A DNA stretch of 34,065 nucleotides from Epibacterium ulvae (GTDB lineage Bacteria; Pseudomonadota; Alphaproteobacteria; Rhodobacterales; Rhodobacteraceae): NCBI RefSeq assembly GCF_900102795.1, contig NZ_FMWG01000020.1:1-34065 (forward strand), written 5' to 3'. Below, piece after piece: positions 1 through 13,892 of this stretch (positions are counted from its first letter, which is position 1; the number at the start of each line of letters is the position of its first letter). Under the pieces are notes generated by a model. The model was not told where the DNA came from. It saw only the letters and a list, made by a program, of their open reading frames with translations, and ran no database searches. The position numbers were made by a program, and so were the translations under genes.

Positions 1-441
1 GTTGGAGAGCAGCCGAGCCTTCGGGTCTACCATGACCACTCGAGAAACCAGAACCTTGACGATACCATGGCGTTCACCCGGATTTACCTGTCCGACGAAA
101 AAATCGAAGTCACAAGTGCCAGCGATTTTGACACTATGACCTTGGTGCAAGAGCGTGAGCTGAAGTTCACAAGCTCAGGAAACTATTTTCAGTTACCAGA
201 TGATCTGGGCCCCGGCATATATTACGCATATGCTCATGTTGATGCGGGCAACAAGTTCGCGGAAACAGACGAAACCAACAACTTTGCCGATCCTTTCAAA
301 ATCATCATTGGGGGCGAAGAGCACATCGCAGAGCTGCAATCACCTAGCGCACCTGTGACGACTTCCCCGAATAGTTCGCTCTATGATATCGATATTGGTG
401 AAGATCACGCCGATGCATTCGTGTTTGATCAATGGCTTTGA
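1..441 (+). CDS. 3' end of a CARDB-type surface/secreted protein (partial at window edge)
   Basis: The frame is open from base 1 to the TGA at 439-441, so the ATG at 67 need not be the start and the gene probably begins outside the window. The middle resembles a CARDB (cell-adhesion-related) beta-sandwich repeat: it has the characteristic YYAYAHVDAGNKFAETDETN stretch, in which a hydrophobic strand is followed by the E-x-D-E-x-N-N turn. The last residues (DHADAFVFDQWL) look like the beginning of an RTX/serralysin-type C-terminal segment (ADxFVF) that is then cut off. Such modules occur in large secreted adhesins or RTX proteins. I infer that the gene was truncated at its 3' end, perhaps at the edge of the accessory island that follows. 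The domain call is moderately sure; the truncation is inference. Confidence 0.5.
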   Translation, partial: VGEQPSLRVYHDHSRNQNLDDTMAFTRIYLSDEKIEVTSASDFDTMTLVQERELKFTSSGNYFQLPDDLGPGIYYAYAHVDAGNKFAETDETNNFADPFKIIIGGEEHIAELQSPSAPVTTSPNSSLYDIDIGEDHADAFVFDQWL

Positions 442-485
442 GGCTATACGACTCGACATAAGCATCTGAGGCTCATCAAGAAGTG

Positions 486-521
486 CATGTTGGTTCTTCG
501 TTGCGTTGCAAAACCAACATG
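486..521. repeat. 10-bp perfect inverted repeat with 16-nt spacer upstream of the RT-like gene
   Basis: CATGTTGGTT at 486-495 is matched by its exact reverse complement AACCAACATG at 512-521. A second, 10-bp perfect palindrome (GTGAATTCAC) lies at 557-566. The block sits between the end of the CARDB gene and the RT-like ORF, where no gene is recognisable. It could be a small structured RNA, a decayed insertion-sequence end, or an operator; the sequence alone does not decide. Confidence 0.5.
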
Positions 522-617
522 TCCTTTCAGCCAAAACACCACTTGGGACAAAAAGTGTGAATTCACGTTTGGGCTCATTCTTGTGATTAGCCGCGTGCTG
601 TTCGAAAGTCTGCACAG

Positions 618-1388
618 GTGGGGGCAGTTCACATCTATGACGATTTTCCCCTCGGGGAGAAAGGCGGGCGCATGTCGCCCACCAATATACTGCATGAACA
701 ACTGCATATGCTCCCACGGGCAGTAGTTGAGAGTTCAGTATTGTCGTCTGGTGTTCTGATGCGGACATCGGGCGGAGCCGCCCTAAGCCGAAACTTACTC
801 GACCGTTTTGGGGTGCCACAGGGGTCGGCGTTGTCGTCCTTTCTGTCGGAATACATCGTAGGTCAGATCATGTCCGAAGCTGAAACGCTTGCCCTATGTG
901 GACAGGTCATGATCGCCTACTGCGATAACATCGCTGTGTTCGGGCAGAACCGAGAGGACGTCAACAGCTTGGCGGAACCCTTGGTTAGCGCCGCAAGGTG
1001 CAGTCCATACGGCGCATTCAGGCTTCGGCGCACGCAAAGCACAAGGCACATCAGCCAAGGGTTCATATTCCTTGGATACCGCCTAAAATGGCATAGCGAA
1101 GGACGGAACAGTTACGTTGAGGTTGATGTCGCGGACAGGAAGAAGGAGCAATTCCAAGCTAAGATCGCCGAGCTGTTACCGCACTGCCGCTTCACCAGAA
1201 ATGTAACGCGTGATGTGCGCGAACAGGCCATGCAGGAGGTAAAGGGCTATGTCCTTGGATGGGCCGAAGCGTTTAAGCGCGCAGATGACATCAAGGGTCT
1301 GGTTCGCGAGCTGCTTGAAGAAGTTCTCTACGAAGAAACTGCCGCTACACAGTTTGCATTTAGGTCCATCCTTCGATCTCTGACTTAA
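618..1388 (+). CDS. Reverse transcriptase-like protein, N-terminally truncated, with YCDN catalytic box
   Basis: The ORF is open from 591 (TAG at 588-590); GTG 618 is the first plausible start, giving 256 aa. RT landmarks are visible in order: residues 65-74 GVPQGSALSS (fingers/palm motif B), 98-104 MIAYCDN (motif C, normally YxDD) and 149-155 FIFLGYR (motif D/E region). They are followed by a helical C-terminal part like the RT thumb. The fingers region with motifs 0-2 is missing, and motif A is doubtful: HIYDDF at residues 5-10 would have His where the first catalytic Asp is expected. Bacterial RTs of this size usually have at least 100 more N-terminal residues. It may be a decayed fragment or a divergent defence-type RT. 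No RT N-terminus was recognised in other frames upstream. Confidence 0.6.
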   Translation: MGAVHIYDDFPLGEKGGRMSPTNILHEQLHMLPRAVVESSVLSSGVLMRTSGGAALSRNLLDRFGVPQGSALSSFLSEYIVGQIMSEAETLALCGQVMIAYCDNIAVFGQNREDVNSLAEPLVSAARCSPYGAFRLRRTQSTRHISQGFIFLGYRLKWHSEGRNSYVEVDVADRKKEQFQAKIAELLPHCRFTRNVTRDVREQAMQEVKGYVLGWAEAFKRADDIKGLVRELLEEVLYEETAATQFAFRSILRSLT

Positions 1389-1766
1389 TGTAGAAATAGG
1401 GCCGGGAAAATCACTCGGCCCATTTCCCGTTTTGTCGATAACGCAGTTCTGCTGGCCGCCTTAAACCTGCTCCAGCGAATGTCTCAGATGTCGTTTCTAT
1501 AGTTCATTTTGCCCTTGTTCGGTTACCGTCGTCGGCTGGCAAGCAAATCGGCACCTTTAATTATGCCCAAGCGTTGAGCGCTGACGCCTACGGTTGAAAT
1601 CCGCCTTCAACTTGGTAAGGCATGACACGAGGTGCAGCGTTGCCGTTCGGTTGGAGTAAACCAACGATCGGAAAAGAGCTCTAAAGCTGTCGGATCGATC
1701 CTAGAGAAAGCAACTAGAAGGCGAAGTTGATCGCGTCTAGGGTGCCCCAAAAGGGGAGCGAAATCG
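1389..1766. other. Intergenic region between the RT-like and DUF3644-type genes
   Basis: No convincing gene on either strand. It holds a GC-rich hairpin at 1399-1421 just after the RT-like stop, and the leader of the next gene with a CCCC-AAAA-GGGG hairpin at 1745-1756 next to the ribosome-binding site. The rest shows nothing I can name. Confidence 0.5.
1399..1421 (+). terminator. Possible terminator hairpin after the RT-like gene
   Basis: GGGCCG (1399-1404) pairs perfectly with CGGCCC (1416-1421) across an 11-nt loop, 11 bases after the RT-like stop codon. The downstream run is only TTTT at 1430-1433 after a short spacer, so this is a weak intrinsic terminator candidate. Confidence 0.35.
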
Positions 1767-2939
1767 ATGCTACGCAGAGCCAGAAACAAGTTAGAAAAGT
1801 GGGAAGTTGCCATTGTGAAGGCAATGCTGACGAAAAACTACGTTCCGCAAGACATACAGGCGTACTTTTCTCGACCAACTCGGTCGATAAACCATGCGCG
1901 CATTTCTGAAATTCGAGACAAGACGAAGCATGTTGCTGTTAGAGCCGCAACAGATGAAGAGCTGGATGCCTTTTTAACAGCGTGGCCCGACGTCGATCCT
2001 TCAACTGGCCTACACTTCAAAGGTGATGAGTTGTTAATCAAAGCCCGTGAAGCCATGATCGCTGCCGTTCATACTTTCAACAGCGCAGGTCTGTTCTTTA
2101 GAGCCGAACTGTTTATCGTCACAGCGATCATCGCTTGGACGTATCTGATGCACGCGTACTACAAGCGCAGGGGTATCGACTACCGCTATAAAGTGAATGG
2201 CGCAGTCCAGAAAACGAAGAATGGTGCGGATAAGCACTGGGAGCTAGGTAAATGCGTTGCCCACGGTGAATGTCCTCTTGATAAAGGTGTGGTGGACAAT
2301 CTGAACTTCCTTTCCGAAATCCGCCACGAGATCGAGCACCAATCGACAAACAGGATAGATGACGCGTTGAGCGCCAAACTCCAAGCTTGCTGCATCAACT
2401 TCAACGACGCGATCAAATCATTGTTTGGCAGAGAGTTTGCACTGGAGAAGCGTCTACCAATCGCCCTGCAATTCGTCACTTTCGATGGGACGCAGCGTGC
2501 TGGCTTAATTGGACAAGACCTTCCCTCAAACTTGGAAACGGCCATGGAAAACTTCCATAACGGCTTGACTGAAGAAGAGCAGGCCGATCCTAAGTTCCGT
2601 TACCGCGTGGCATTTGTTCCTAAACTGTCAGGAAAAGCATCCAAATCCGACTTGGCAATTGAATTTGTGAAACCCGGATCGCCAGAGGCGGAGGCCGCCG
2701 AGCGCGTGCTATTGAAGGAAACCGAAAAACCCAAGCACTTACCTTCCCAAATCGTCGCAAAAGCAAAAGCAGCGGGCCACAACTTCGGGCAATACGATCA
2801 CACCAAACTAGTCGATCAGCTCAATGCCCGTGAGCTAGGTAAAGGTTACGGGGTTTGGGTGGCCAATAAATGGTACTGGTACGATGCTTGGTATGAGAAG
2901 GTTATCGAAAAGCTAGAAGAGGGCTGGACGCGCCCTTAA
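1767..2939 (+). CDS. DUF3644-type protein with HEPN-like R-x4-H motif and N-terminal HTH-like segment
   Basis: 390 aa, starting at an ATG preceded by AGGGGAG at a suitable distance. Residues 11-50 form a short helix-turn-helix-like segment (PQDIQAYFSRPTRSINHARI). Residues about 85-215 look like the DUF3644 domain: helical, with IKAREAMIAAVHTFN and NFLSEIRHEIEHQ. R186 and H191 make an R-x4-H arrangement, the signature of HEPN ribonuclease folds. The C-terminal 70 residues (SQIVAKAKAAGHNFGQYDHT, then an aromatic-rich GVWVANKWYWYDAWY) resemble a DNA- or substrate-binding module seen at the end of such proteins. No reaction is established for the family; a toxin or RNase role in defence is inference from the motif and from the neighbouring RT-like gene and Qat operon. 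Confidence 0.65.
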   Translation: MLRRARNKLEKWEVAIVKAMLTKNYVPQDIQAYFSRPTRSINHARISEIRDKTKHVAVRAATDEELDAFLTAWPDVDPSTGLHFKGDELLIKAREAMIAAVHTFNSAGLFFRAELFIVTAIIAWTYLMHAYYKRRGIDYRYKVNGAVQKTKNGADKHWELGKCVAHGECPLDKGVVDNLNFLSEIRHEIEHQSTNRIDDALSAKLQACCINFNDAIKSLFGREFALEKRLPIALQFVTFDGTQRAGLIGQDLPSNLETAMENFHNGLTEEEQADPKFRYRVAFVPKLSGKASKSDLAIEFVKPGSPEAEAAERVLLKETEKPKHLPSQIVAKAKAAGHNFGQYDHTKLVDQLNARELGKGYGVWVANKWYWYDAWYEKVIEKLEEGWTRP

Positions 2940-3083
2940 GCAAAGTATTTGACCACATGATAAAGCCACGATTGGCCATCGTCTAGCAGTTAGCTAATTG
3001 ATCAGAGGCTTCACAGAAGTAAATCCTTGATTGCAGTTGAGGCGTGATACGTTTCGATGTAAAATATTGTCAGGACTGCGTAA

Positions 3084-3372
3084 AACGGCGTGGTCTCGGG
3101 GCGTAGTAAACTGATGCTGACCATGTTCGCCGCGATGGCCCAGTTTGAACGCGAGATGATGCTGGAACGTCAGCGTGAAGGCAAAGGCGGCTGGAAGGTA
3201 CAAGGGCCGCGCTCCGGTGCCAGATAGCACGACCCAACAAGTTCTGTTGTTGTACGCTAAGGGGATCAAACCAGCGAAAATCGCTAAAGACCTTTCTCTT
3301 GGACGCTCGACTGTCTATCGACTGCTCAAAAGGCCCCCCAATCTACACTCTACAGACCGCTCACTCTCTTAA
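3084..3372 (+). pseudogene. Serine recombinase (Tn3-type resolvase) C-terminal remnant, frameshifted
   Basis: In one frame 3111-3170 encodes LMLTMFAAMAQFEREMMLER followed by QREG, the typical end of a resolvase catalytic domain and E helix. The frame then becomes nonsense, and the expected continuation (AKAAGRYKGRAPVP, then a C-terminal HTH with KPAKIAKDLSLGRSTVYRLL) appears in another frame from about 3175 to the stop at 3372. The join near 3168-3178 lacks the usual IAKAK linker bases, so a small deletion is likely. The N-terminal catalytic serine region is absent (TAA at 3081 in frame). It is a relic of a transposon or integrative element; no terminal inverted repeats were seen around it. 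Confidence 0.85.
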
Positions 3373-3503
3373 ACAGCTTCTGACGCCACGCTTAGCAGGC
3401 GCAATGCCACCTTGAATGTCATCCCTGATGGAGCTCGTTGGGTGCATTTTCCCCCAACTGGCATTCCACAATAGTTTGGGCGATAGTTGTCTGAAATAAA
3501 CTT

Positions 3504-4217
3504 TCAGGCGACAAGAGTTGCTAGGTTTGACTTCAGAGTATTTGCCGTTTCTATGGCATCCATTCGCCAAATGTTCGAGAGCCCTTTGGTTGCTTCGCTC
3601 AATGATGAAGAGATATTGCTACTTGCAAACGGCGCATCGGTCTCCGTCAAAATACGTTCACTGGGCATTTTGGCGACAGTAGCTTTTCCTTTAGCAGTGC
3701 GCAACATTGGAGCACCAATAGAAAACCAACACCCCAGCTTGATTGCTCTCTCCAGTTCAAAACGGTTCCCGGTAAACCAATGCAGGACTGGAACACCAAA
3801 GCCCGGATGCTCTTCGATTTTGTCAAGCACCGCATCCGCTGCGTGGCGGCTGTGAATAGATACAATCTTAGAGCCGTCAGATCTGCAAAGAGAGAGAATT
3901 TCTGAGAAAATCTTTGCTTGAGACGATTGTGATTTCGTGAACTCCTTTCCGCCGTCTAACCCAACCTCACCGACATATCGAGTTTCATGTAGCATCCTCT
4001 CAAAAAGCGGCAACTCATTGGGCCGTTCACCAACAAGTTGTGGATGATAGCCAAGGGCAGTTCTAATTCGCCCCTTAACCTTTACCAACCGAGATGTCTT
4101 CGGGAAGGCCTTCGGAACGGTAGTTACAGATAGAACGTAAATTTGAGCGACTTCCAGTTCCCGCACCGTTTTTGCAGGATCTTTCATCAAGTCAAGATGA
4201 CAATGAAAATCAATCAC
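3504..4217 (-). CDS. qatD: QatD: TatD-like metal-dependent nuclease of the Qat defence system
   Basis: TatD-family fold with all metal-site landmarks: DFHCHLDL at the start (H5, H7), GEVGLDGG (glutamate ligand), SIHSRH, LHWFTG (histidines) and TETDAPF (aspartate). I chose GTG 4217, one base after the qatC stop (TAGCGTG), because it puts the metal-binding HxH at residues 5-7 as in TatD proteins. An upstream ATG at 4271 would add 18 residues inside qatC. The product is about 237 aa, slightly short for TatD (about 260). As last gene of the qatABCD operon it is expected to supply the DNase activity; in published Qat systems (E. coli, Gao and colleagues) this component is required for phage protection. 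No strong terminator follows; there is only a 6-bp hairpin at 3491-3507. Confidence 0.88.
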   Translation of the reverse strand: MIDFHCHLDLMKDPAKTVRELEVAQIYVLSVTTVPKAFPKTSRLVKVKGRIRTALGYHPQLVGERPNELPLFERMLHETRYVGEVGLDGGKEFTKSQSSQAKIFSEILSLCRSDGSKIVSIHSRHAADAVLDKIEEHPGFGVPVLHWFTGNRFELERAIKLGCWFSIGAPMLRTAKGKATVAKMPSERILTETDAPFASSNISSSLSEATKGLSNIWRMDAIETANTLKSNLATLVA

Positions 4218-4218
4218 G

Positions 4219-5538
4219 CTACACGCCTTGGCTTGTGAGAAAATCACCCATTTCCTCAAGGCCCCGCTCATAGACAGAAAGCCACGCCCGGCGCTCGGTA
4301 CTATCGATTGGAAGCGGACCGGACTTGAGTGCGTTCACGAGCCGCTGCTTCTTTGTCGTTTGACGAACGGACCTGATAACCGCCATGAGATCGTCCTTCT
4401 TGGTGCCGTCACGTTCAGCAAAGTTTTGGGGGATTGAGTAGGTGTATGGTGTACTGTCTACTATCCCCGCTTTGTGGAATGACGCTCTACGTATCAGGCA
4501 GGGTAGACAACGGCCACACTGTTCACTCTTTCGTTTCCACTTGCCGCATGAAACTGTCTGACAAGCGTGTCGCTGATCATCCGCAGTCAGTGCCGCGTTC
4601 TTCATCATTTCACCCTTGGTCAAGGTCCAGAACGGATTGCCAATGTTAGCTCTTATGCCGACACGCGAGAACAATTCTTGCAATTGAGACAGATAATTCG
4701 GATGAGCAGTGCGTGTGCTGTGCGATCCAACGCGCCGTGGTGTTAGCGGGGCGTTCAACGCAATAAAGCCGTTTTCGGGTATGTAAAGGGGCACCTGATT
4801 AAGCCCGTTGAGCTCAGCCACAGCATCTGCACAAACTGCTCCCATTGCGAGAAAATTGAAACTTCTTCCACGCATCGTTGTATCGTTAGCGCTTCCCGAT
4901 TGTCTCGGGCTAGCATTGAGGGAAAACCGCTGGAGGGGGTACCCTAAACGGTCATATAAGTAGTTCTGTCGCCGGGCGTCTTGCGGGTAAGAATGACTGA
5001 CAAGGATTGGATTTTTACCACCTGCGGTGAGGTGCTTTGCGCCAAGCCAGCTATCCAACCCTCCAGAGTACAGACATACGCTATCGACGTTTGTCAGGTT
5101 GGATTTTTTCCTAAGTCGCCCCCCAACCGCGTTGGGTTTGGAAGGGCCGTTCGGCAGAAAGGTAAACGCCCAACTATCACCTGTCAGAAAGTTTAGAATT
5201 TTCCGCAACAACGGCTCAACCGCTGCCCATTTGGCTGGCTGCACGAGTGGCACATGGAGTTCAAAATCGCGCGCCCAGCCGTTCTGAGAGACATCCTCCC
5301 TGCGGAAAAAAGTATCGGCTGCTGTGACTGCCATCGAAATAGTCAGAAAGTCATAAGCAGCGGTCGACGTTGGGGCGCCCAAGCGCTCAACTTTATCAGG
5401 TACAGTTTTACCTATGAACCCTGCATTGGCTATGTGGTGGCAGGTATCGTACAGTCGAACAACTCGGCAATTGTCGGCTATGTTTTTAGTTCTCTGAATT
5501 TCTTCAGTTTGAAAATGTGCTACACATTTAGTCATCAT
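4219..5538 (-). CDS. qatC: QatC: QueC-like PP-loop protein of the Qat defence system
   Basis: 439 aa. Residues 158-163 are SGGLDS, the PP-loop ATP-pyrophosphatase signature shared with QueC (7-cyano-7-deazaguanine synthase). Cys331, Cys341, Cys344 and Cys347 (C-x9-C-x2-C-x2-C) match the zinc site at the end of QueC proteins. It is about twice the length of a housekeeping QueC, with roughly 150 extra N-terminal residues, which is typical of QatC rather than a queuosine enzyme, and no other que gene is nearby. The ATG at 5538 (a second ATG follows at 5535) lies inside the end of qatB, an 11-bp overlap that suggests translational coupling. The true substrate is unknown; a nucleobase or protein modification resembling deazaguanine chemistry has been proposed for such proteins. 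Confidence 0.92.
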   Translation of the reverse strand: MMTKCVAHFQTEEIQRTKNIADNCRVVRLYDTCHHIANAGFIGKTVPDKVERLGAPTSTAAYDFLTISMAVTAADTFFRREDVSQNGWARDFELHVPLVQPAKWAAVEPLLRKILNFLTGDSWAFTFLPNGPSKPNAVGGRLRKKSNLTNVDSVCLYSGGLDSWLGAKHLTAGGKNPILVSHSYPQDARRQNYLYDRLGYPLQRFSLNASPRQSGSANDTTMRGRSFNFLAMGAVCADAVAELNGLNQVPLYIPENGFIALNAPLTPRRVGSHSTRTAHPNYLSQLQELFSRVGIRANIGNPFWTLTKGEMMKNAALTADDQRHACQTVSCGKWKRKSEQCGRCLPCLIRRASFHKAGIVDSTPYTYSIPQNFAERDGTKKDDLMAVIRSVRQTTKKQRLVNALKSGPLPIDSTERRAWLSVYERGLEEMGDFLTSQGV

Positions 5539-6287
5539 AGCGCTCCCAAGTTTCCCAAACGTGTTGAGCTGCCGTGCGCATATATTTTTCGACTGCTTCT
5601 GATCCTAGATTAATGCCCGTTTGCTGTACCTGTGCGGCAAACGACTGTTCAACGTGTTCTCTTGTCAGATCCAATATTTCCGCTTCACATCTAGCGGTAT
5701 TCACCACATCCTTAGATCGGCTCCAAGAGTTTCCAGCGTCATTAACAACAATTTGAAAAATTGACTGCGAAAGGTACTCTATCATGATTTGAGCAATATT
5801 GTCGTCGGTTAGCGAGCTCGGATCGAAGTCAGTGTCAAGATCAAGCGCCTGCTCAATTGCTTCCTGAACAGCAACGCAGATAATGTCCGCATCGGGGCTG
5901 TCGCCACCTACATGTTCAGCAATCGCTTGCGCAAACTGATCTACAGTTTTTCCCGTGTAGCGACTGGCATCCAATCCTTCGACGTCGTTACCATCGGCAA
6001 TATTTTTCAGCGTTTCGCCAAATGAACCACCAGATGAGATTACTCGACCCAATCGCCTCGGGCCAATGCCAGCCCCCCCCCGAGGCTTGTCGCGCAAATC
6101 TCCCCAGTGATTTCTCTAGGGGAGCTTTACCGCCACCCCCTGAAACGTAATCACCAAAGCTCTTTCTGAAGGACCTGTATCGGTTTGGATCGGATGTTGG
6201 CTGTGGCGCTCCGGGTTGGTCATCTGCCCATTCAGGGACCAACGGATTGCGACCTCGACCGCCCTTGGAAGATGCAGAGGTCCCCAT
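5528..6287 (-). pseudogene. qatB: QatB of the Qat defence system, one-base frameshift at a G9 tract
   Basis: The ATG at 6287 overlaps the qatA stop (TAATG). The first frame gives MGTSASSKGGRGRNPLVPEW, a Pro/Gly-rich head typical of QatB, and runs to SLGRFARQAS at a run of nine G on the coding strand (C at 6073-6081). The remainder, GIGPRRLGRVISSGG onward to the stop at 5528, lies in another frame. Removing one G (eight instead of nine) joins both halves into a 252-aa protein of normal QatB layout: Gly-rich head, a basic GRF-A-R patch, then a helical body. Either the tract is a sequencing or assembly error, or it is a real slippage or phase-variation site, or the gene is newly inactivated. QatB has no known enzymatic motif but is part of every Qat operon. 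Confidence 0.85.
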
Positions 6288-8047
6288 TATAGGCTCCCAT
6301 CCTGTAGTGTTTCGGTCAGGCGCTTCAGCCAAGCAGCGGGCTGCTGGATGCTTGATAGGAACCGCACCAGTTCATCTCTTGTCTCTTGGTGCTTAGTGGC
6401 AAGTACTACAGCACCATTGACGTCTGCACGTTTGCGAGACCAATCACCATCTTGGCGCAGGGAATTGATTAGCTCACTCATCGCGGCAGGTCTCTCGTCC
6501 GCCGGAATTAGATCAATTGCGACTTCAGCAGCCTTTGAAGTTCTTGTAGCAATTTTTAATAGAGCTGAAATTGCCTTGATCGTATCCGGGGAGAGGGCTG
6601 CGTTTTTAATTTGAAGTGGCAGGGTCTCCCTGGCCAAATATACAGCGGCTCGCAAATCTGTATTGGATAGATCGGGTGAAAGTTGTCCCCACTCAGCGAT
6701 GAAGTCCTTATGATCATGCCAGCTCTCCGGAAATCCAGATGTTGAGCTTGCAATTTTTTCCAAACTATTTGAGGCTAACCCTTTAACCTTCCCCTTTGGA
6801 GAAGCGTTCACGAGCTTTAGCAAGTCACCGAATGCTCTTTCACTTGTACACCGTTCAAACAAAGAGATCTTTGCAATGACAGCTTCGTCCAAATTCATTT
6901 TCCGCCTAATTGCAAGTCCATGCCGCATTCGTACCGTATTCATCATCCTTTTAATTATTCTGGGGTTCCCTAGAACTGCCTTGGATTGAGCAAGCGTCGG
7001 AGCTATCCTTACGACGTTCTCGATCTGTGTCGTCAAATCAGCATTCGCGGAAACTATTTCGACTAGCCTATGTAGTGAGAACTCTTCACTCCCTGACCAA
7101 GATTTTTGAATTGTTTCCAGCAGGTAGGTGCGCGCGTTTTCCAAAGCCTCAGCATCCACTGTAGAGGATCTAGACAATACCAGCATGCACAAAAACGCCT
7201 GAACTTCTTGGAGGCCAAGCCTTGGTACTGCGACAGGAAATTGAATTAGTTTGTCTAGGTAATCATCAACGTGTTTTTTTGATGCACCTGCAAAGTGAGA
7301 GGCAACTGCGTGCCGAACCATGTCAACATCTGCTGCAACAACAAATGCAGTATTCGGCAGGGAAAGAAACAACCGCATTGCTTCCAAATTTTCGATTGCG
7401 GTCTTTGGAAGGCAGCGATCCAAGTTATCTACAAAGACAACCAGACGTCTATCTAGGTCTTTTAAAAGAGATGAAAACTCTGCCTTAAATGCAGCAATCT
7501 CTTCAGGCGGAGACTGAACTTCCTTCGGATCTATCAGCCCCTTCATCTTATTAGATGCAGCGGCCGCGCCCTCCTGAATAGCCTTAAGGTCTTCTTCATC
7601 TCCTTCTCCGGAAAGTGCATCTCCACCAGACGTGATTGCCCGTGACACGAAGCCGAAGGTGGGCAGCCCTAGTGCAGCCATTCCGGCCTCAGCACCTAGG
7701 CCTAGAAGCCTGAGTTTGTTAACTCGTCTGAACAGCCCTTTTGCTTGCTCCTGTAGACTTTCAGGCGCCTCCGCAATGAGAGCTTGAGAAATGACGGTCA
7801 TCAAGGCCGCTTTTGCTTCATCAAACCCCTGGTACAGCCATGCATCGAATTCAATAACGATGGTATCCCCATCTCTGGCGAGTTGCTTATCTACCAGTTG
7901 TAGGATGCTCGACTTTCCAACACCCCACCCTCCATAGACCCCCACCGATAGGGGCAAGAGTGTGTCATCTGAGATCATTTCGCAGATCATTTCTGCGACT
8001 TCAGAATGGTTCAAATAGTCGTTGCGAGTTTCGTTATCGGACCACAT
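6287..8047 (-). CDS. qatA: QatA: KAP-family P-loop ATPase of the Qat defence system
   Basis: 586 aa. Walker A is at residues 39-46 (GGWGVGKS), and Walker B with sensor is at about 198-212 (RRLVVFVDNLDRCLP). The fold fits a KAP NTPase, a STAND-like AAA+ relative: the head SEVAEMICEMI..LPLSVGVYG, then IVIEFDAWLYQGFD after the P-loop, are KAP hallmarks. A Gly/Ala-rich hydrophobic stretch between the Walker motifs (about 115-140), where many KAP proteins carry membrane segments, is only weakly hydrophobic here. It is the first gene of the operon, with AGGA shortly before ATG 8047. It ends in TAATG shared with qatB. Likely the energy-using sensor or effector module of Qat; what it senses is not known. 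Confidence 0.93.
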   Translation of the reverse strand: MWSDNETRNDYLNHSEVAEMICEMISDDTLLPLSVGVYGGWGVGKSSILQLVDKQLARDGDTIVIEFDAWLYQGFDEAKAALMTVISQALIAEAPESLQEQAKGLFRRVNKLRLLGLGAEAGMAALGLPTFGFVSRAITSGGDALSGEGDEEDLKAIQEGAAAASNKMKGLIDPKEVQSPPEEIAAFKAEFSSLLKDLDRRLVVFVDNLDRCLPKTAIENLEAMRLFLSLPNTAFVVAADVDMVRHAVASHFAGASKKHVDDYLDKLIQFPVAVPRLGLQEVQAFLCMLVLSRSSTVDAEALENARTYLLETIQKSWSGSEEFSLHRLVEIVSANADLTTQIENVVRIAPTLAQSKAVLGNPRIIKRMMNTVRMRHGLAIRRKMNLDEAVIAKISLFERCTSERAFGDLLKLVNASPKGKVKGLASNSLEKIASSTSGFPESWHDHKDFIAEWGQLSPDLSNTDLRAAVYLARETLPLQIKNAALSPDTIKAISALLKIATRTSKAAEVAIDLIPADERPAAMSELINSLRQDGDWSRKRADVNGAVVLATKHQETRDELVRFLSSIQQPAAWLKRLTETLQDGSL

Positions 8048-8429
8048 AGAAAATTCCTAAACTATACGGAGGCACAATCACCTCAAAGATGTGCAACTGT
8101 AAAGCCTGCACGTGGAAACTGCGCAAGCCATCAAGCAATAGATCAAGCGGCAGCGTCGAAACTACCAAGACTGGGAAGGAACAGCTTCGCCATCGCACCT
8201 AAATCTTCAGTTCCTTCGGTTCTGAACGCACCGCATTCACTGGTGGGGAGACACAAAAGTGATAGGCATCCACTTTCGGGCAGCTGCAATGGCTGCACAC
8301 AAATAAACTGTGCCCAGGTTCAAACTTTGATGTTGCCCACTAGCAATCTGCATGGGTGGATAGCAGGGTGGATTGAGAAAGTCGCGAAACAGCTAGATTG
8401 CTGATATTAATGACATAATTTAGATTATA
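8048..8429. other. Upstream region of the Qat operon, up to tRNA-Thr
   Basis: About 380 bases without a convincing gene. A plus-strand frame (8006-8404) has no recognisable motif and overlaps the qatA start, so I treat it as chance. The promoter of the Qat operon should lie here on the minus strand; a TATAGT hexamer occurs about 20 bases before qatA, but no well-spaced -35 box is clear. No recognisable integrase remnant is visible beside the tRNA. Confidence 0.4.
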
Positions 8430-8505
8430 TGGTGCCCCCACACGGACTCGAACCGCGGACCTACTGATTACAAATCAGTTGCTCTACCAGCTGAGCTATA
8501 GGGGC
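8430..8505 (-). tRNA. tRNA-Thr (anticodon TGT)
   Basis: On the minus strand the sequence folds as a 76-nt tRNA including an encoded CCA. The acceptor stem is GCCCCTA/TGGGGGC (one G-T pair); the D-arm is AGCTCAGCTGGTAGAGC. The anticodon stem ACTGA/TCAGT encloses loop TTTGTAA, so the anticodon is TGT. The T-arm is CGCGGTTCGAGTCCGTG. The 3' end faces the Qat island, the usual side for integration of mobile elements. Confidence 0.97.
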
Positions 8506-8705
8506 ACTGGCGGTGCGTTTAAAGAAACCTATAATCGAGCACAAGAGAAAAAATGCAGTTTTCATCACAAAAATCAATTTTCCTCCTAACGCCTTCCTTT
8601 CACTCTCACTTTCGACATGAAGTGGCCTTGATTTCCCCATCAAAACGACGGGAAATATTGCGAATGGTAAAGAGAGTATCACAAGACAAGACGTACTGAG
8701 GGCCC

Positions 8706-9581
8706 ATGCAGGTTATTATTCATTGTGGCGCACATGGAACTGAAGAGGATCGCTTGCTCAAAACCCTTTTGCGCAACCGTTCAACGTTTGCGAATAACGC
8801 AACGGTCGTGCCTGGCCCCGGGCGGTATCGTGCTCTTTTACGCAAGTGTCTCGAAGCGCTGGAGCAAGGAGCATTTGCGCCGGAAACGAATGGCGCACTT
8901 TGGGATGCAATTTTAGACGAGGAAACTGCTGAGCGTGTCGTGCTCTCCAATGTGAATTTTTGGGGATCCAGACGTCAGGCGTTGAAAGACAACGTGCTTT
9001 ACCCGGCTGCGGAACATCGTATCGCGCTGACGCAAAACCTCTTTCCTGACGATGACTTGCATATCCACCTGACCTTGCGCAATCCTGCGGCCTTTATCCC
9101 GACGTTGCTGCGCGACGCCGCACCAGAACGTGCACATGAACTGCGACATGGTTGTGACCCTCGTCAGACAAGATGGTCTGATCTTTTAATCCGTCTTCGT
9201 AGCAGCGCACCAACAGTGCCAATCACCGTATGGTGTTACGAGGATTTACCGTTTATCTGGGCCTCAATCCTGCGACATATTGGTGGGCTACCTGAAGGAA
9301 CCCGGCTTCAAGGGGGGCTAGATGTCCTTGCCTCTGTCATGTCACGTGAGGGAATGCGTCGTTTGCGCGCGTATCTGAAAGTTCATGATACGATTAGCGA
9401 ACCACATAAGAGACGTGTTTATGCGGCCTTTCTAGATAAATACGCCGAAGATGATGCTCTTGAAGAAGAGCTTGATGTGCCCGAATGGAGTGAAGTGTTG
9501 ATTGAAGAAGCCACACAACGCTACGAAGACGATCTACAGCTAATCAGCACTCTTGACGGCGTCACATTGATTGCCCCTTGA
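8706..9581 (+). CDS. Conserved hypothetical protein, possibly sulfotransferase-like
   Basis: 291 aa, ATG preceded by GAGGG. The N-terminus (VIIHCGAHGTEEDRLLKTL) resembles the start of sulfotransferase-type P-loop proteins, which typically read hHxGxxKTGTs, but the key K-T-G-T residues are replaced by GTEEDR, so PAPS binding is doubtful. Further features are LHIHLTLRNPAAFIPTLL, like the R-N-P segment of sulfotransferases (3'-phosphate contact), and VPITVWCYEDLPFIW. There is no signal peptide or membrane segment. It lies 39 bases before a glycosyltransferase-like gene on the same strand and is probably co-transcribed, hinting at a role with surface glycans. Function not established. Confidence 0.7.
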   Translation: MQVIIHCGAHGTEEDRLLKTLLRNRSTFANNATVVPGPGRYRALLRKCLEALEQGAFAPETNGALWDAILDEETAERVVLSNVNFWGSRRQALKDNVLYPAAEHRIALTQNLFPDDDLHIHLTLRNPAAFIPTLLRDAAPERAHELRHGCDPRQTRWSDLLIRLRSSAPTVPITVWCYEDLPFIWASILRHIGGLPEGTRLQGGLDVLASVMSREGMRRLRAYLKVHDTISEPHKRRVYAAFLDKYAEDDALEEELDVPEWSEVLIEEATQRYEDDLQLISTLDGVTLIAP

Positions 9582-9620
9582 TCTTGAGGCGACTTAAATC
9601 GATTGGATATCTCCGCAGCT

Positions 9621-10610
9621 ATGTCTCTGTGCTCTTTTAACATTCTAATTGTAGCTCAGGCTGGACGTCTACAATACGAAGCGCTGCTATTCGCGGCCTC
9701 ACTTCGCCAATATTCGCCAAAATTTCAGGGGCGCTTGATTGTTGCCGTGCCTCAAATAGGCCCGTTGTGGACCGAAGATCCAAGCCTGAAAGACGATGAG
9801 GTTATCCAAGCTCTATCACGATTGGGAGCTGAGATTGTCCCTTTTGAGAACAAAGTATTTGGGGAGCGCTACAAACACGGCAATAAAATCGAAGCTCTTA
9901 AAGTTTTGCCCCCTGAGGCACCGTTCATATTTTTTGACAGCGACACGCTGATTACCAATGAAATCTGCGATGTTCCTTTTGACTTCACCAGACCCTCAGC
10001 TTCCCTACGACGGGAAGGAACATGGCCCAAACCTACGCTTTACGGCCCCGGCCACACCAAGATCTGGCAATCTCTTTACACGCGCTTTGGTCTGGATTTT
10101 GAAAGCAGCCTCGACCCAAAACAGCCCGAAGGGTATTGGAAACGCTATCTCTATTTCAACGCAGGCTTTTTCTACGGGTCCTGCCCCAGAACATTTGGCA
10201 CGCGGTTTCTGCAATATGCAGAGACGCTTAAGCGTGACTTGCCACGTGAATTGATTGGTCAGTCGCTTAACCCCTGGCTGGACCAAGTCGCGCTGCCACT
10301 TGTCATTCACAGCCTTGGTGGCGGGCGCGACACCCTACCTGCTGGATATCTTGATGGGCACACGAGCTGTCATTATCGCCTCTTCCCGCTACTATATGCC
10401 CGTGAAAGCGATCGCACCGTAAAGGCGCTTGAACACATCACGGCTCCCAACTGGTTAAAACGCATTCTCAAACGACATGATCCAATCAAGCGTATGGTCT
10501 ACCAAGGCAAAGGTGCCAAAGTCCGTGCACTATTTGATCAAAACAACTTACCCAAGCGTGAAAACGCTATTCGAAAACGCATCAAAGCCGAGGGATACTG
10601 GATCCGCTGA
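9621..10610 (+). CDS. Glycosyltransferase-like conserved hypothetical protein
   Basis: About 329 aa from ATG 9621; a TTG at 9603 could add six residues. I prefer the ATG because the first strand (FNILIVAQAGRLQYEALLFA) follows directly. The layout is like a GT-A glycosyltransferase: a nucleotide-binding N-terminal strand, then FIFFDSDTLITN with a D-x-D metal/UDP-sugar motif near residue 115, followed by YLYFNAGFFYGSCP and LNPWLDQVALPLV, similar to the N-x-G and D-Q acceptor-site segments of GT8/GT24-like enzymes. There is a positively charged C-terminal tail. It follows the 8706 gene closely. Donor and acceptor cannot be told. Confidence 0.65.
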   Translation: MSLCSFNILIVAQAGRLQYEALLFAASLRQYSPKFQGRLIVAVPQIGPLWTEDPSLKDDEVIQALSRLGAEIVPFENKVFGERYKHGNKIEALKVLPPEAPFIFFDSDTLITNEICDVPFDFTRPSASLRREGTWPKPTLYGPGHTKIWQSLYTRFGLDFESSLDPKQPEGYWKRYLYFNAGFFYGSCPRTFGTRFLQYAETLKRDLPRELIGQSLNPWLDQVALPLVIHSLGGGRDTLPAGYLDGHTSCHYRLFPLLYARESDRTVKALEHITAPNWLKRILKRHDPIKRMVYQGKGAKVRALFDQNNLPKRENAIRKRIKAEGYWIR

Positions 10611-11105: not shown

Positions 11106-13892
11106 ATGGTTTACCCAAAGATGAAACCCGATTTTGCACTTTCTTTGTCGGCAGATGGCATAATTTTGTACGAACGCGCCCAATCTGGTTGGTACAATTT
11201 AGGAACCGTGCCTTTTAGCTCCTCCGATTTAAGCAGCGCATTAGACGACCTGCGCGCTAAGGGTGCCAATTCCGATACTGAGATCCAGTGTAAACTCATT
11301 ATTCCTGATGACCAAATTCGCTTTCTGACAATCGAAACGGGTACGGCCAACAGCGAGACACGCTTTATCCAAGCACGCGCCGCACTTGAAGGAGCGACAC
11401 CATATAGCGTGGATGAACTCGCCCTTGATATCTCAGAGGACGGCGCGTTCACCCACATCGCGGCTGTGGCACTTGAGACGTTGGCAGAAGCCGAAGCCTT
11501 TGCAACCGAACATAAGTTCACACCTGTGAGTTTTGTCGCGACCCCCAGCGGCCAATCCTTTTCTGGCGAGCCATTTTTTGGAACAGCTCAGGCTGCCCTA
11601 GGGATCGCTGTGGAAAGAGATACCCAAGCTCTTGTCGATTTAGGCTCTCCTCCCCCCGCAATAACCCCCTCTACACCTGACGAACCAACACCCTCCGCTG
11701 ATCCGGATCCCGTCGCGGAAACATCCCCTCCCCTCTCTGAGACCTCAACTGAAGCTAATCCGGATCTAGAAAAAGATGTGGAGGAAGAGGATGTCACCGA
11801 AAAGGAAGAAACGCAGGCAGAAGCGGCTTCTGATCTCGCCCGTCCAGAGGACGCAAAGCCCGATAGCCCACCTGCCCAAGAAACAGATGTAGAAGACGTT
11901 TCACCCGCTAAAGAGGCGCCCGAAGAAGAGGCCACGGCAACATCTGGGTTTATCAGCCGCCGTGCAGGTAGCACACCTGCTGCTGCGCCCGCACCACAAT
12001 CGGTAGCAACACACACACCGCCAAAGACAAACATTGCTCTTGGAGCCGCACCAACCGCAGCTCCCACCTTGGCCGCCTCCTCCGCTTTGGGCGCAGCAAA
12101 ACGAGATTTCGAGCCGCCGAAAACCGCCGCTGCGATACCGCCCGCTCCCGTGCATGATATGCCATCCGTTGCCGCCCAGATTGCAGCAATGAGAGAGGCT
12201 GCAAAGGCTGCTGCCGCCCCAAAACCTATCGAAGTTCCACCTGTCTTACAGAACAAGCTTCGCGCAACGGCAGAGCAAGGCAAAATTCCTGAATTTGATG
12301 CCACAAAATTTGCGGCGCACAATCCTCTGCCACCGTCAGAAGCCGGCCCCCCCCCCAACAGCACGCAAATCTCCCCTCGGGAAACCGCGCTTGCTGCAAC
12401 AGCCGAGCCAACCGTTGGAGGCAAACCCCGGTTTTTACTTGTCGGCCTGATTGGTGTATTGTTGTTGTTTATGATCGCTGTGGCAACCTTTGCGCTGCAA
12501 TCAGGTGATCTTGAGCTTTTGAAAGCTGAACCCGAGAAATCACGTCTTCAACCGACAACCCTGCCTGAGCCGGTCACCCCTTCAGAGCTTTCACTTCCTG
12601 CGACCCTTGCACCTGCCGCAACGATAGCAGAACCTAAAGCTCCAGATCTCAGTGTTGAGGTGCTCCCTAATGCACCCTCAGAAACACCCAACGCCCCTAC
12701 TCCCACGCTACCAAGTCAGCAAATCGCAAGCCTAGGTGACATCTCTCCAGACACACCTGCAGTCCCAATTCCTGCGCCCCTGCGCACAGAACCGCTCCAA
12801 TCTGCAACGGTCACGCCTGAGCAGGAAGACACACCTTTGGATAATAAAGCCGAGGTGCTCACATCATCATTAACAGAAGTCCCGGCACAGATCGCTAGAT
12901 ACGCAGCCACTGGAATTTGGCAAACCAGCCCCAAAAGCCCTGCCCTTCCAACGCAACCGAAACATGAAAAAATTTACGTTGCATCTTTGGATCGCACAAA
13001 TCTTGCATCAGATGCAGTATCGCTTCCACTGGCTCCGTTGTATGAAACCGACAGTCATCCAAATGCAGTCGAACCCGCCCCGGCTGTTGGTGCTGAGGCA
13101 GCGACCAGCGACGACAGCTTTGATCTGGATGATCGTGGTTTGGTAACGGCCACACCCGAAGGCACATTAAACCCCGATGGGGTTATGGTGTTTTTGGGGC
13201 GCCCAAGTAACGTACCACCGCAGCGTCCAGCGCAAGCCCAGCCAGAACAACCCACCGAAGCTGCCATAGCATCGGTGCCTTCTGGCAAAAGACCACGCGC
13301 GCGCCCTACAGCATTGCAAGCTGAATTTGAACGCTTGGAGCAAGAACGCGAAAGAATACAGCAAGAACAGACACGTCTGGCAGCCCTGGCATCCAAACGT
13401 CCGCGCACGCGTCCCGCTCGTTTACAGATAGCCGTTCAACAAGCGCTAGAAGAAGCGGTGGATCAGGCACCTGCACCGGAAGTATTAGAAGAAGAACCTG
13501 TTAAAGTTGCTTCAATCGCTCCGTCAGCGCGCCCCCGCAGTCGTCCTGCAAACTTCAACCGTCTGGTCAACCGCGCCCGCCGAGAAGCAGAACGGACACC
13601 AACCGTAGCAGTGCCCGCCGCAGCGGCAATCACACCACAACAGCCCAGCAGCGCATCCGCGACTCGTCAGGCAACCGTCAGAGGCGCGATCAATCTGCGC
13701 AAGGTTAATCTGATTGGCGTGTCAGGCACAGCGTCAAACCGACGCGCAATTGTTCGTTTACCATCTGGTCGTTTGAAACGTGTTGGCGTCGGTGACACCA
13801 TTGATGGCGGTCGGGTCGTAGCGATTGGTACAGACCAACTGCGGTACCAAAAACGAGGTCGCGATTTGACGCTTGCAATGCCGAACGGCTAA
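11106..13892 (+). CDS. Large single-pass membrane protein with GspC/PilP-like C-terminal domain
   Basis: 928 aa from ATG 11106; ATG 11121 is an alternative start. The N-terminal ~160 residues (DFALSLSADGIILYER, then ETRFIQARAALEGATPYSVD) resemble the actin-like fold of PilM/GspL secretion proteins. Residues about 185-435 are Pro/Ala/Glu-rich and low-complexity, followed by one membrane helix at about 440-463 (FLLVGLIGVLLLFMIAVA). A second long Pro-rich stretch contains three copies of a PRxRP motif (about residues 728, 764, 808). The last 65 residues (GVGDTIDGGRVVAIGTDQLR and flanks) look like a GspC/PilP periplasmic domain. Topology is probably cytoplasmic N-terminus and periplasmic C-terminus. 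A role in an envelope-spanning complex is inference; no other pilus or secretion gene is adjacent. A run of ten C (12347-12356) is in frame. Confidence 0.75.
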   Translation: MVYPKMKPDFALSLSADGIILYERAQSGWYNLGTVPFSSSDLSSALDDLRAKGANSDTEIQCKLIIPDDQIRFLTIETGTANSETRFIQARAALEGATPYSVDELALDISEDGAFTHIAAVALETLAEAEAFATEHKFTPVSFVATPSGQSFSGEPFFGTAQAALGIAVERDTQALVDLGSPPPAITPSTPDEPTPSADPDPVAETSPPLSETSTEANPDLEKDVEEEDVTEKEETQAEAASDLARPEDAKPDSPPAQETDVEDVSPAKEAPEEEATATSGFISRRAGSTPAAAPAPQSVATHTPPKTNIALGAAPTAAPTLAASSALGAAKRDFEPPKTAAAIPPAPVHDMPSVAAQIAAMREAAKAAAAPKPIEVPPVLQNKLRATAEQGKIPEFDATKFAAHNPLPPSEAGPPPNSTQISPRETALAATAEPTVGGKPRFLLVGLIGVLLLFMIAVATFALQSGDLELLKAEPEKSRLQPTTLPEPVTPSELSLPATLAPAATIAEPKAPDLSVEVLPNAPSETPNAPTPTLPSQQIASLGDISPDTPAVPIPAPLRTEPLQSATVTPEQEDTPLDNKAEVLTSSLTEVPAQIARYAATGIWQTSPKSPALPTQPKHEKIYVASLDRTNLASDAVSLPLAPLYETDSHPNAVEPAPAVGAEAATSDDSFDLDDRGLVTATPEGTLNPDGVMVFLGRPSNVPPQRPAQAQPEQPTEAAIASVPSGKRPRARPTALQAEFERLEQERERIQQEQTRLAALASKRPRTRPARLQIAVQQALEEAVDQAPAPEVLEEEPVKVASIAPSARPRSRPANFNRLVNRARREAERTPTVAVPAAAAITPQQPSSASATRQATVRGAINLRKVNLIGVSGTASNRRAIVRLPSGRLKRVGVGDTIDGGRVVAIGTDQLRYQKRGRDLTLAMPNG

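What the first reader, a model, noticed from the sequence alone, without database searches (positions are those of the whole stretch)
6073..6081. G9 homopolymer puts qatB out of frame by one base
The N-terminal half (to RFARQAS) and C-terminal half (from GIGPRRLGR) of QatB lie in different frames that meet exactly at nine consecutive G on the coding strand. Eight G would restore a normal 252-aa QatB. This could be a sequencing error, but it could also be a phase-variable switch or a programmed slippage site turning a costly defence system on and off. The rest of the operon shows no decay, which argues against an old pseudogene.
Basis: partly seen in the sequence, partly recalled or inferred. 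Interest (0 to 1): 0.72.

Follow-up and report, generated by a model that had tools for sequence, protein, structure and literature searches.

The report
Frameshifted phage-defence gene at G9 run
A gene needed by a bacterial anti-virus system is split into two reading frames at a run of nine G's, most likely a recent slip that switches the system off in this clone; the run is probably accidental rather than an evolved switch, although such runs can slip again.

Summary
Nine C on the + strand (G9 on the coding strand) lie at 6073-6081. The two overlapping frames that meet there match the start and the rest of one QatB profile; qatA, qatC and qatD are full length. The closest relatives encode the same Ser-Gly-Gly-Ala motif as TCGGGAGGAGC, without a G run. 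Of 27 relatives whose DNA was read there, one distant QatB has an in-frame G8 and none has nine. So the run looks like a lineage-specific result of synonymous changes at a highly conserved Gly-Gly motif plus a one-base length change, not a conserved switch. Long G runs are ordinary in this genome: 11 of nine or more, seven of them in genes, and the other six of those seven in frame. The C half shows little sign of decay, so the lesion is recent or an assembly error. The 99-aa product keeps the MGTS tail but lacks the QatC-binding helices, so defence is predicted OFF, probably with a polar effect on the overlapping qatC. Best reading: a recent slipped-strand OFF allele, reversible in principle. 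Assembly error stays open because no reads are held.

The parts
6287..8047 (-). qatA, KAP-family NTPase, 586 aa, full length
   Evidence: PADLOC QatA PDLC02210 E 1.3e-185 over residues 1-577; Pfam KAP_NTPase; 86% identical over 585 aa to L002; NCBIfam QatA 390 bits, below its cut-off of 600
5988..6287 (-). qatB first frame from the MGTS start: about 70 residues in the QatB frame, then about 29 out-of-frame residues to the stop at 5990-5988
   Evidence: PDLC02212 1-70; translation
6073..6081 (-). G9 run on the coding strand where the two frames meet; encodes the highly conserved Gly-Gly motif
5528..6097 (-). qatB second frame (189 codons from a mechanical TTG start; the homologous part begins at about 6079)
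   Evidence: PDLC02212 65-248; NCBIfam QatB NF041924 67.9 bits, below its cut-off of 100
4219..5538 (-). qatC, QueC-like, 439 aa, full length; its ATG overlaps the end of the qatB second frame by 11 nt
   Evidence: PDLC02214 E 3.2e-111, NF041925 above cut-off; overlap context
3504..4271 (-). qatD, TatD-like nuclease, 255 aa, full length
   Evidence: PDLC02215 E 1.3e-87, NF041926 above cut-off
8430..8505 (-). tRNA-Thr next to the operon, possible insertion hotspot
   Evidence: ARAGORN; same-genus G003 matches the window over 8406-10594, and its 1.5 kb held on the other side of the tRNA has no match

Best explanation
A recent slipped-strand length change in a G run inside qatB put the gene out of frame in the sequenced clone and so switched the Qat system off. 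Step 1 (inferred from comparison): a highly conserved Gly-Gly-Ala/Ser motif is encoded TCG-GGA-GGA-GCN in the closest relatives; synonymous changes in this lineage made it an uninterrupted G run. Step 2 (inferred): replication slippage changed the run by one base. Step 3 (shown by reading frame): translation ends after 99 aa, with the MGTS tail and, by alignment, about one helix, but without the helices that bind QatC. Step 4 (inferred): the stop about 450 nt before the qatC start, which normally overlaps the end of qatB, also lowers QatC and QatD by uncoupled translation. QatB with QatC is the minimal defence unit in P. aeruginosa, so defence is predicted off. A G run of this length can slip again, so the state may be reversible, but nothing shows that the run was selected for switching.
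For: Both halves match one QatB profile and meet at the run. L002, L003 and L004 have GCTTCGGGAGGAGC at the site and an intact 252-aa gene. qatA, qatC and qatD are full length. The C half has 2 private changes at columns where all other sequences agree; 18 intact homologues have 0-3. Its dN/dS against L002 is 0.084, beside 0.060 for qatA and 0.097 for qatD. Of seven coding runs of G>=9 in the genome, six lie in open frames of 518-927 aa, four of these with Pfam domains, one being formate-tetrahydrofolate ligase; the only broken gene is an accessory one, absent from 17 of 17 same-genus genomes searched. Deletion of qatB or a G2D substitution abolishes defence by P. aeruginosa qatABCD in E. coli (PMC13279940, section read). 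The motif aligns at about residue 98 of QatB 9zee, before the QatC-contact residues 164-214.
Against: No reads, second isolate or independent assembly could be examined, so an assembly error is not excluded; the window's protein cluster P0001 stands for 3 sequences on 2 contigs, but the second contig could not be seen. Amino-acid changes unique to the window against L002 (third sequence L003) are more skewed in the C half (19 to 2) than in qatA (45 to 24), about as in qatC (50 to 10); this could hint at slight relaxation and an older lesion. mutS and mutL are intact, so there is no sign of a raised slippage rate.
Confidence: 0.6

Rival explanations
1. Assembly or sequencing error: the real genome has an in-frame run and a normal QatB.
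For: The C half shows little sign of decay and the rest of the operon is full length. Illumina reads can fail at G tracts, and a reference-sequence G-tract length in Bifidobacterium breve was not the commonest one in culture (passages of PMC9187656). The genome is a 30-contig draft; its sequencing method is not known to me.
Against: Six of seven coding runs of G>=9 in the same assembly lie in open frames, including a C10 6 kb away in the same contig and a G9 in the FTHFS gene. Weakly: no 252-aa copy closer than 85-86% was listed.
Confidence: 0.25
2. A phase-variable (contingency) locus: length changes of the run switch Qat on and off in the population and the run is kept by selection.
For: Early position in an essential gene of the system; a break with everything else intact. 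A distant QatB (L093, genome G921) has an in-frame G8 at exactly the same motif. Precedents: a G-tract switch of pili with polarity on downstream genes (PMC9187656, passages); a homopolymer in BREX brxX (PMC6326788, one passage).
Against: The closest relatives have no G run; 1 of 27 relatives read has G8 and none has nine. Of 22 genomes searched in the genus of G921, itself included, only G921 holds the gene, so conservation of that run is untested. GGG is 28% of 95 Gly codons in qatA, qatC, qatD and the qatB C half, so such a run should arise by chance in about 1% of copies (my estimate). Long G runs are common in this genome.
Confidence: 0.1
3. Programmed recoding: RNA polymerase or ribosomes slip on the G run and make some full-length QatB.
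For: The frames overlap around the run, and homopolymer slippage is known in bacteria (listing only).
Against: The run is absent in close relatives. The needed shift is +1 for the ribosome, or one base fewer in the transcript; the bacterial slippage survey in the listing analysed runs of A and T (PMC1088944, start of abstract).
Confidence: 0.04
4. Split protein: tail peptide and helical domain are made separately and work together.
For: The second frame is open from just before the run; a TTG at 6097 has GGGGAG just upstream.
Against: That TTG lies 2 nt after the G-rich stretch, too close for a normal Shine-Dalgarno (general knowledge); the next in-frame ATG is at 5785, deep in the domain. The tail is modelled in the QatC active site while its own domain is bound to QatC (PMC13279940).
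Confidence: 0.01

Closest known systems
QatABCD anti-phage system
   Same: Four genes in the order A, B, C, D; QatB MGTS start; QueC-like QatC; TatD-like QatD; KAP NTPase QatA
   Different: QatB is not encoded in one frame in this assembly
G-tract replication-slippage switch of Bifidobacterium breve pilus operons (PMC9187656, passages seen)
   Same: An intragenic G run decides whether translation passes from a first to a second ORF of one gene, with polarity on downstream genes
   Different: There such tracts recur across the genus and length variants were counted; here the run is absent from close relatives and no variants could be looked for
Homopolymer in BREX brxX (PMC6326788, one passage seen)
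   Same: Suggested on/off switching of a defence system by a homopolymer in a core gene
   Different: Different system; no evidence of switching here

Membership tests
QatABCD defence system | QatA KAP NTPase, QatC QueC-like and QatD TatD-like, adjacent and full length | tested here: met
   PADLOC, NCBIfam and Pfam hits; QatA is below the NCBIfam cut-off (390 of 600 bits) but strong in PADLOC
QatABCD defence system | QatB with an N-terminal MGTS motif | tested here: met
   First frame starts MGTSASSKGG
QatABCD defence system | QatB tail and helical domain in one reading frame | tested here: not met
   Frames meet at 6073-6081
QatABCD defence system | Protection against phage | not testable with these tools
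   Needs a plaque assay
Simple-sequence phase-variable locus | Repeat in the coding region whose length sets the frame | tested here: met
Simple-sequence phase-variable locus | Repeat kept in related copies | tested here: not met
   At the site 1 of 27 relatives has G8 and none has nine; the closest have runs of 3
Simple-sequence phase-variable locus | Length variants among clones, altered expression | not testable with these tools
   No reads or sister strains held; one genome per species
Programmed frameshifting or transcriptional slippage | Conserved slippery site shared by relatives with split frames | tested here: not met
   Close relatives are in one frame without the run

The most novel reading that the evidence does not exclude
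qatB is a contingency locus: its highly conserved Gly-Gly motif lets different lineages evolve a G8-G9 run at the same place (this window, out of frame; G921/L093, in frame), so populations bet-hedge between Qat ON and OFF cells, with one slip silencing QatB and, by polarity, QatC.
Probability: 0.1. Interest if true: 0.6.

Novelty: new member of a known kind. Interest (0 to 1): 0.3.

Why it matters
If real, it is a natural loss-of-function allele of QatB, the proposed protein substrate of a newly described QueC-family defence reaction, at a site that could revert, so the cost of carrying Qat could be measured by following run length with and without phage. It also warns that a defence-system caller may count a Qat operon as complete when QatB is broken, since both fragments hit the QatB profile.

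Tried and rejected
Conserved switch: not borne out in close relatives, which lack a G run. Hypermutator background: mutS and mutL intact. Systematic homopolymer error: six of seven coding runs of G>=9 in open frames. Old pseudogene: no excess of changes at invariant columns, though the 19-to-2 count goes the other way. Split exactly at the tail/domain border: considered, then dropped; by the PDB 9zee alignment the motif lies about 33 residues inside the folded domain (counted by hand from the printed alignment; tail length from PMC13279940). Phage- or virus-borne copies: none confirmed in one IMG/VR scan or in phages. Plasmids: 45 records, all under 60% identity, no near DNA match. E. coli: 6 of 5426 genomes with a partial match to the L093 gene, listing only. 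Island borders: no repeat of the tRNA end among repeats of 14 nt or more in 1-9000. First genome pattern was badly chosen and found nothing. Papers holding Qat, anti-phage, frameshift and phase variation together: 0; phase variation, anti-phage defense system and slipped-strand mispairing together: 0.

Weak points: the qatD rows against L003 and L004 compare only 4 codons (wrong frame chosen) and were not used; synonymous distances are saturated for qatC and high in most other pairs. L046 is identical in sequence to L003, and L049/L055 are one genome; each pair is counted once. Of 43 G8 runs only 30 were held and read. Two of the six intact tract-bearing ORFs (L012 and window 11106-13892) have no Pfam hit and rest on length alone. 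Protein hits are clusters at 90% identity, so near-identical members cannot be seen.

Full report
Observation. The window holds nine C at 6073-6081 on the + strand, nine G for the genes on the minus strand. Two overlapping ORFs meet there: 5988-6332(-) and 5528-6097(-). They match one PADLOC family, QatB PDLC02212, at positions 1-70 and 65-248 of 248. Around them lie full-length QatA (6287-8047), QatC (4219-5538) and QatD (3504-4271), all on the minus strand. Read from the MGTS start at 6287, the first frame gives 99 aa and stops at 5990-5988.

Relatives. A protein search with the C half gave 20 proteins including the window's own cluster (P0001, 3 sequences on 2 contigs, the second not visible to me); the best intact one listed is 252 aa and 85% identical over the C half. 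In the alignment the two Gly of the motif are nearly invariant, and the 18 homologues that cover the site run through it in one frame. Three named genomes hold close copies, 80-86% identical over the C half: Roseobacter sp. MH60115 (L002), Celeribacter naphthalenivorans (L003) and C. neptunius (L004). All read GCTTCGGGAGGAGC at the site, longest run three G. Over together, 27 distinct relatives were read at the site (23 intact ORFs, plus L058, L059, L060 and the split gene of G105; duplicates counted once). L069 has a G7 about 20 residues upstream, in frame. Of 22 genomes searched in the genus of G921, itself included, only G921 holds the gene. Of the 15 loci that I picked as true QatC (the strongest hits and G105), 13 have an open MGTS frame of 248-296 aa just before qatC; the window (99 aa) and G105 do not.

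The genome. It is a 3.99-Mb draft in 30 contigs, and the window is contig C26, 34065 bases. It has 11 runs of G>=9 and 43 of exactly G8. Of the 11, four lie outside genes as judged by eye from translations (L007, L008, L011, L013). Seven lie in genes, and six of these seven are inside open frames of 518-927 aa, four of them with Pfam domains: GH42, FTHFS, RTX repeats and patatin. Only qatB is broken. Of the 30 G8 loci held (of 43), 20 lie inside an open frame of at least 900 nt running through the run (not checked by family). So long G runs are ordinary and mostly in frame here. GGG makes up 28% of 95 Gly codons in qatA, qatC, qatD and the qatB C half, so a G8 at a Gly-Gly-Ala motif is no great rarity (about 1% of copies by my estimate). 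mutS and mutL are intact.

Age. At columns where all other sequences agree, the C half has two private, conservative changes; 18 intact homologues have 0 to 3. dN/dS against L002 is 0.017 (N half), 0.084 (C half), 0.060 (qatA) and 0.097 (qatD); for qatC it could not be computed. One count goes the other way: changes unique to the window against L002 are 19 to 2 in the C half, 45 to 24 in qatA and 50 to 10 in qatC; L003 is nearer to L002 than to the window, so part of this skew is built in. On balance the lesion is recent or not real.

Effect. In P. aeruginosa Qat, QatB with QatC is enough for defence against some phages, the QatB N-terminal glycine is essential, and the contacts with QatC lie in QatB residues 164-214 (PMC13279940: abstract, passages, the first part of the Results and the QatB section read). 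The motif aligns to about residue 98 of 287 in PDB 9zee, so the 99-aa product here keeps the tail and about one helix and loses every listed QatC contact (inference). The qatC start overlaps the end of qatB in the window and in L002-L004; a stop about 450 nt upstream probably reduces QatC too (inference, by analogy with the polarity discussed in PMC9187656, passages).

Context. The operon lies on the 3' side of a tRNA-Thr. 0 of 100 sampled relatives, including 17 of the same genus, have qatB. The genus member G003 matches the window over 8406-10594, tRNA included, but its 1.5 kb held beyond the tRNA has no match in the window. This fits an acquired, dispensable island. Another genome of the family, G105, has qatA, qatB and qatC each split over two frames: Qat operons do decay by frameshift.

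Verdict. Real observation. Most likely it is a recent slipped-strand OFF allele at a run created by codon drift; assembly error is second; a selected phase-variable switch is possible but unsupported; programmed recoding is unlikely.

Noticed in passing
L055 and L049 (genome G105:C4, about 6348-8393): A relative's Qat operon has qatA, qatB and qatC each spread over two frames: a multi-lesion, decaying Qat locus.
   Followed up: partly
L093:2742-3575 (G921:C4): A distant intact QatB carries an in-frame G8 at the same Gly-Gly motif; sister strains would show whether its length varies.
   Followed up: partly
L013 (G000:C25:408230-408239): A G10 run ends 2 nt before the ATG of an open frame in the same genome, a place where length changes could alter translation.
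   Followed up: no
window 12347-12356: C10 inside an open 928-aa frame, in frame.
   Followed up: yes
window 618-1388: Open frame with the C-terminal part of a reverse transcriptase (weak RVT_1, group II intron and DRT-like hits); by eye no N-terminal part is seen in the three + frames upstream.
   Followed up: partly
window 1767-2939: 390-aa DUF3644 protein that matches the PADLOC candidate defence family PDC-S19 (E 3.1e-108), near the Qat operon.
   Followed up: no
window 8430-8505: tRNA-Thr with different DNA on its 3' side in a same-genus relative (G003): a possible insertion hotspot.
   Followed up: partly
window 5528-6097: The NCBIfam QatB model (179 positions) starts matching at the Gly-Gly motif, so the tail with the MGTS motif seems to lie outside the model and truncated copies may be named QatB.
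   Followed up: no
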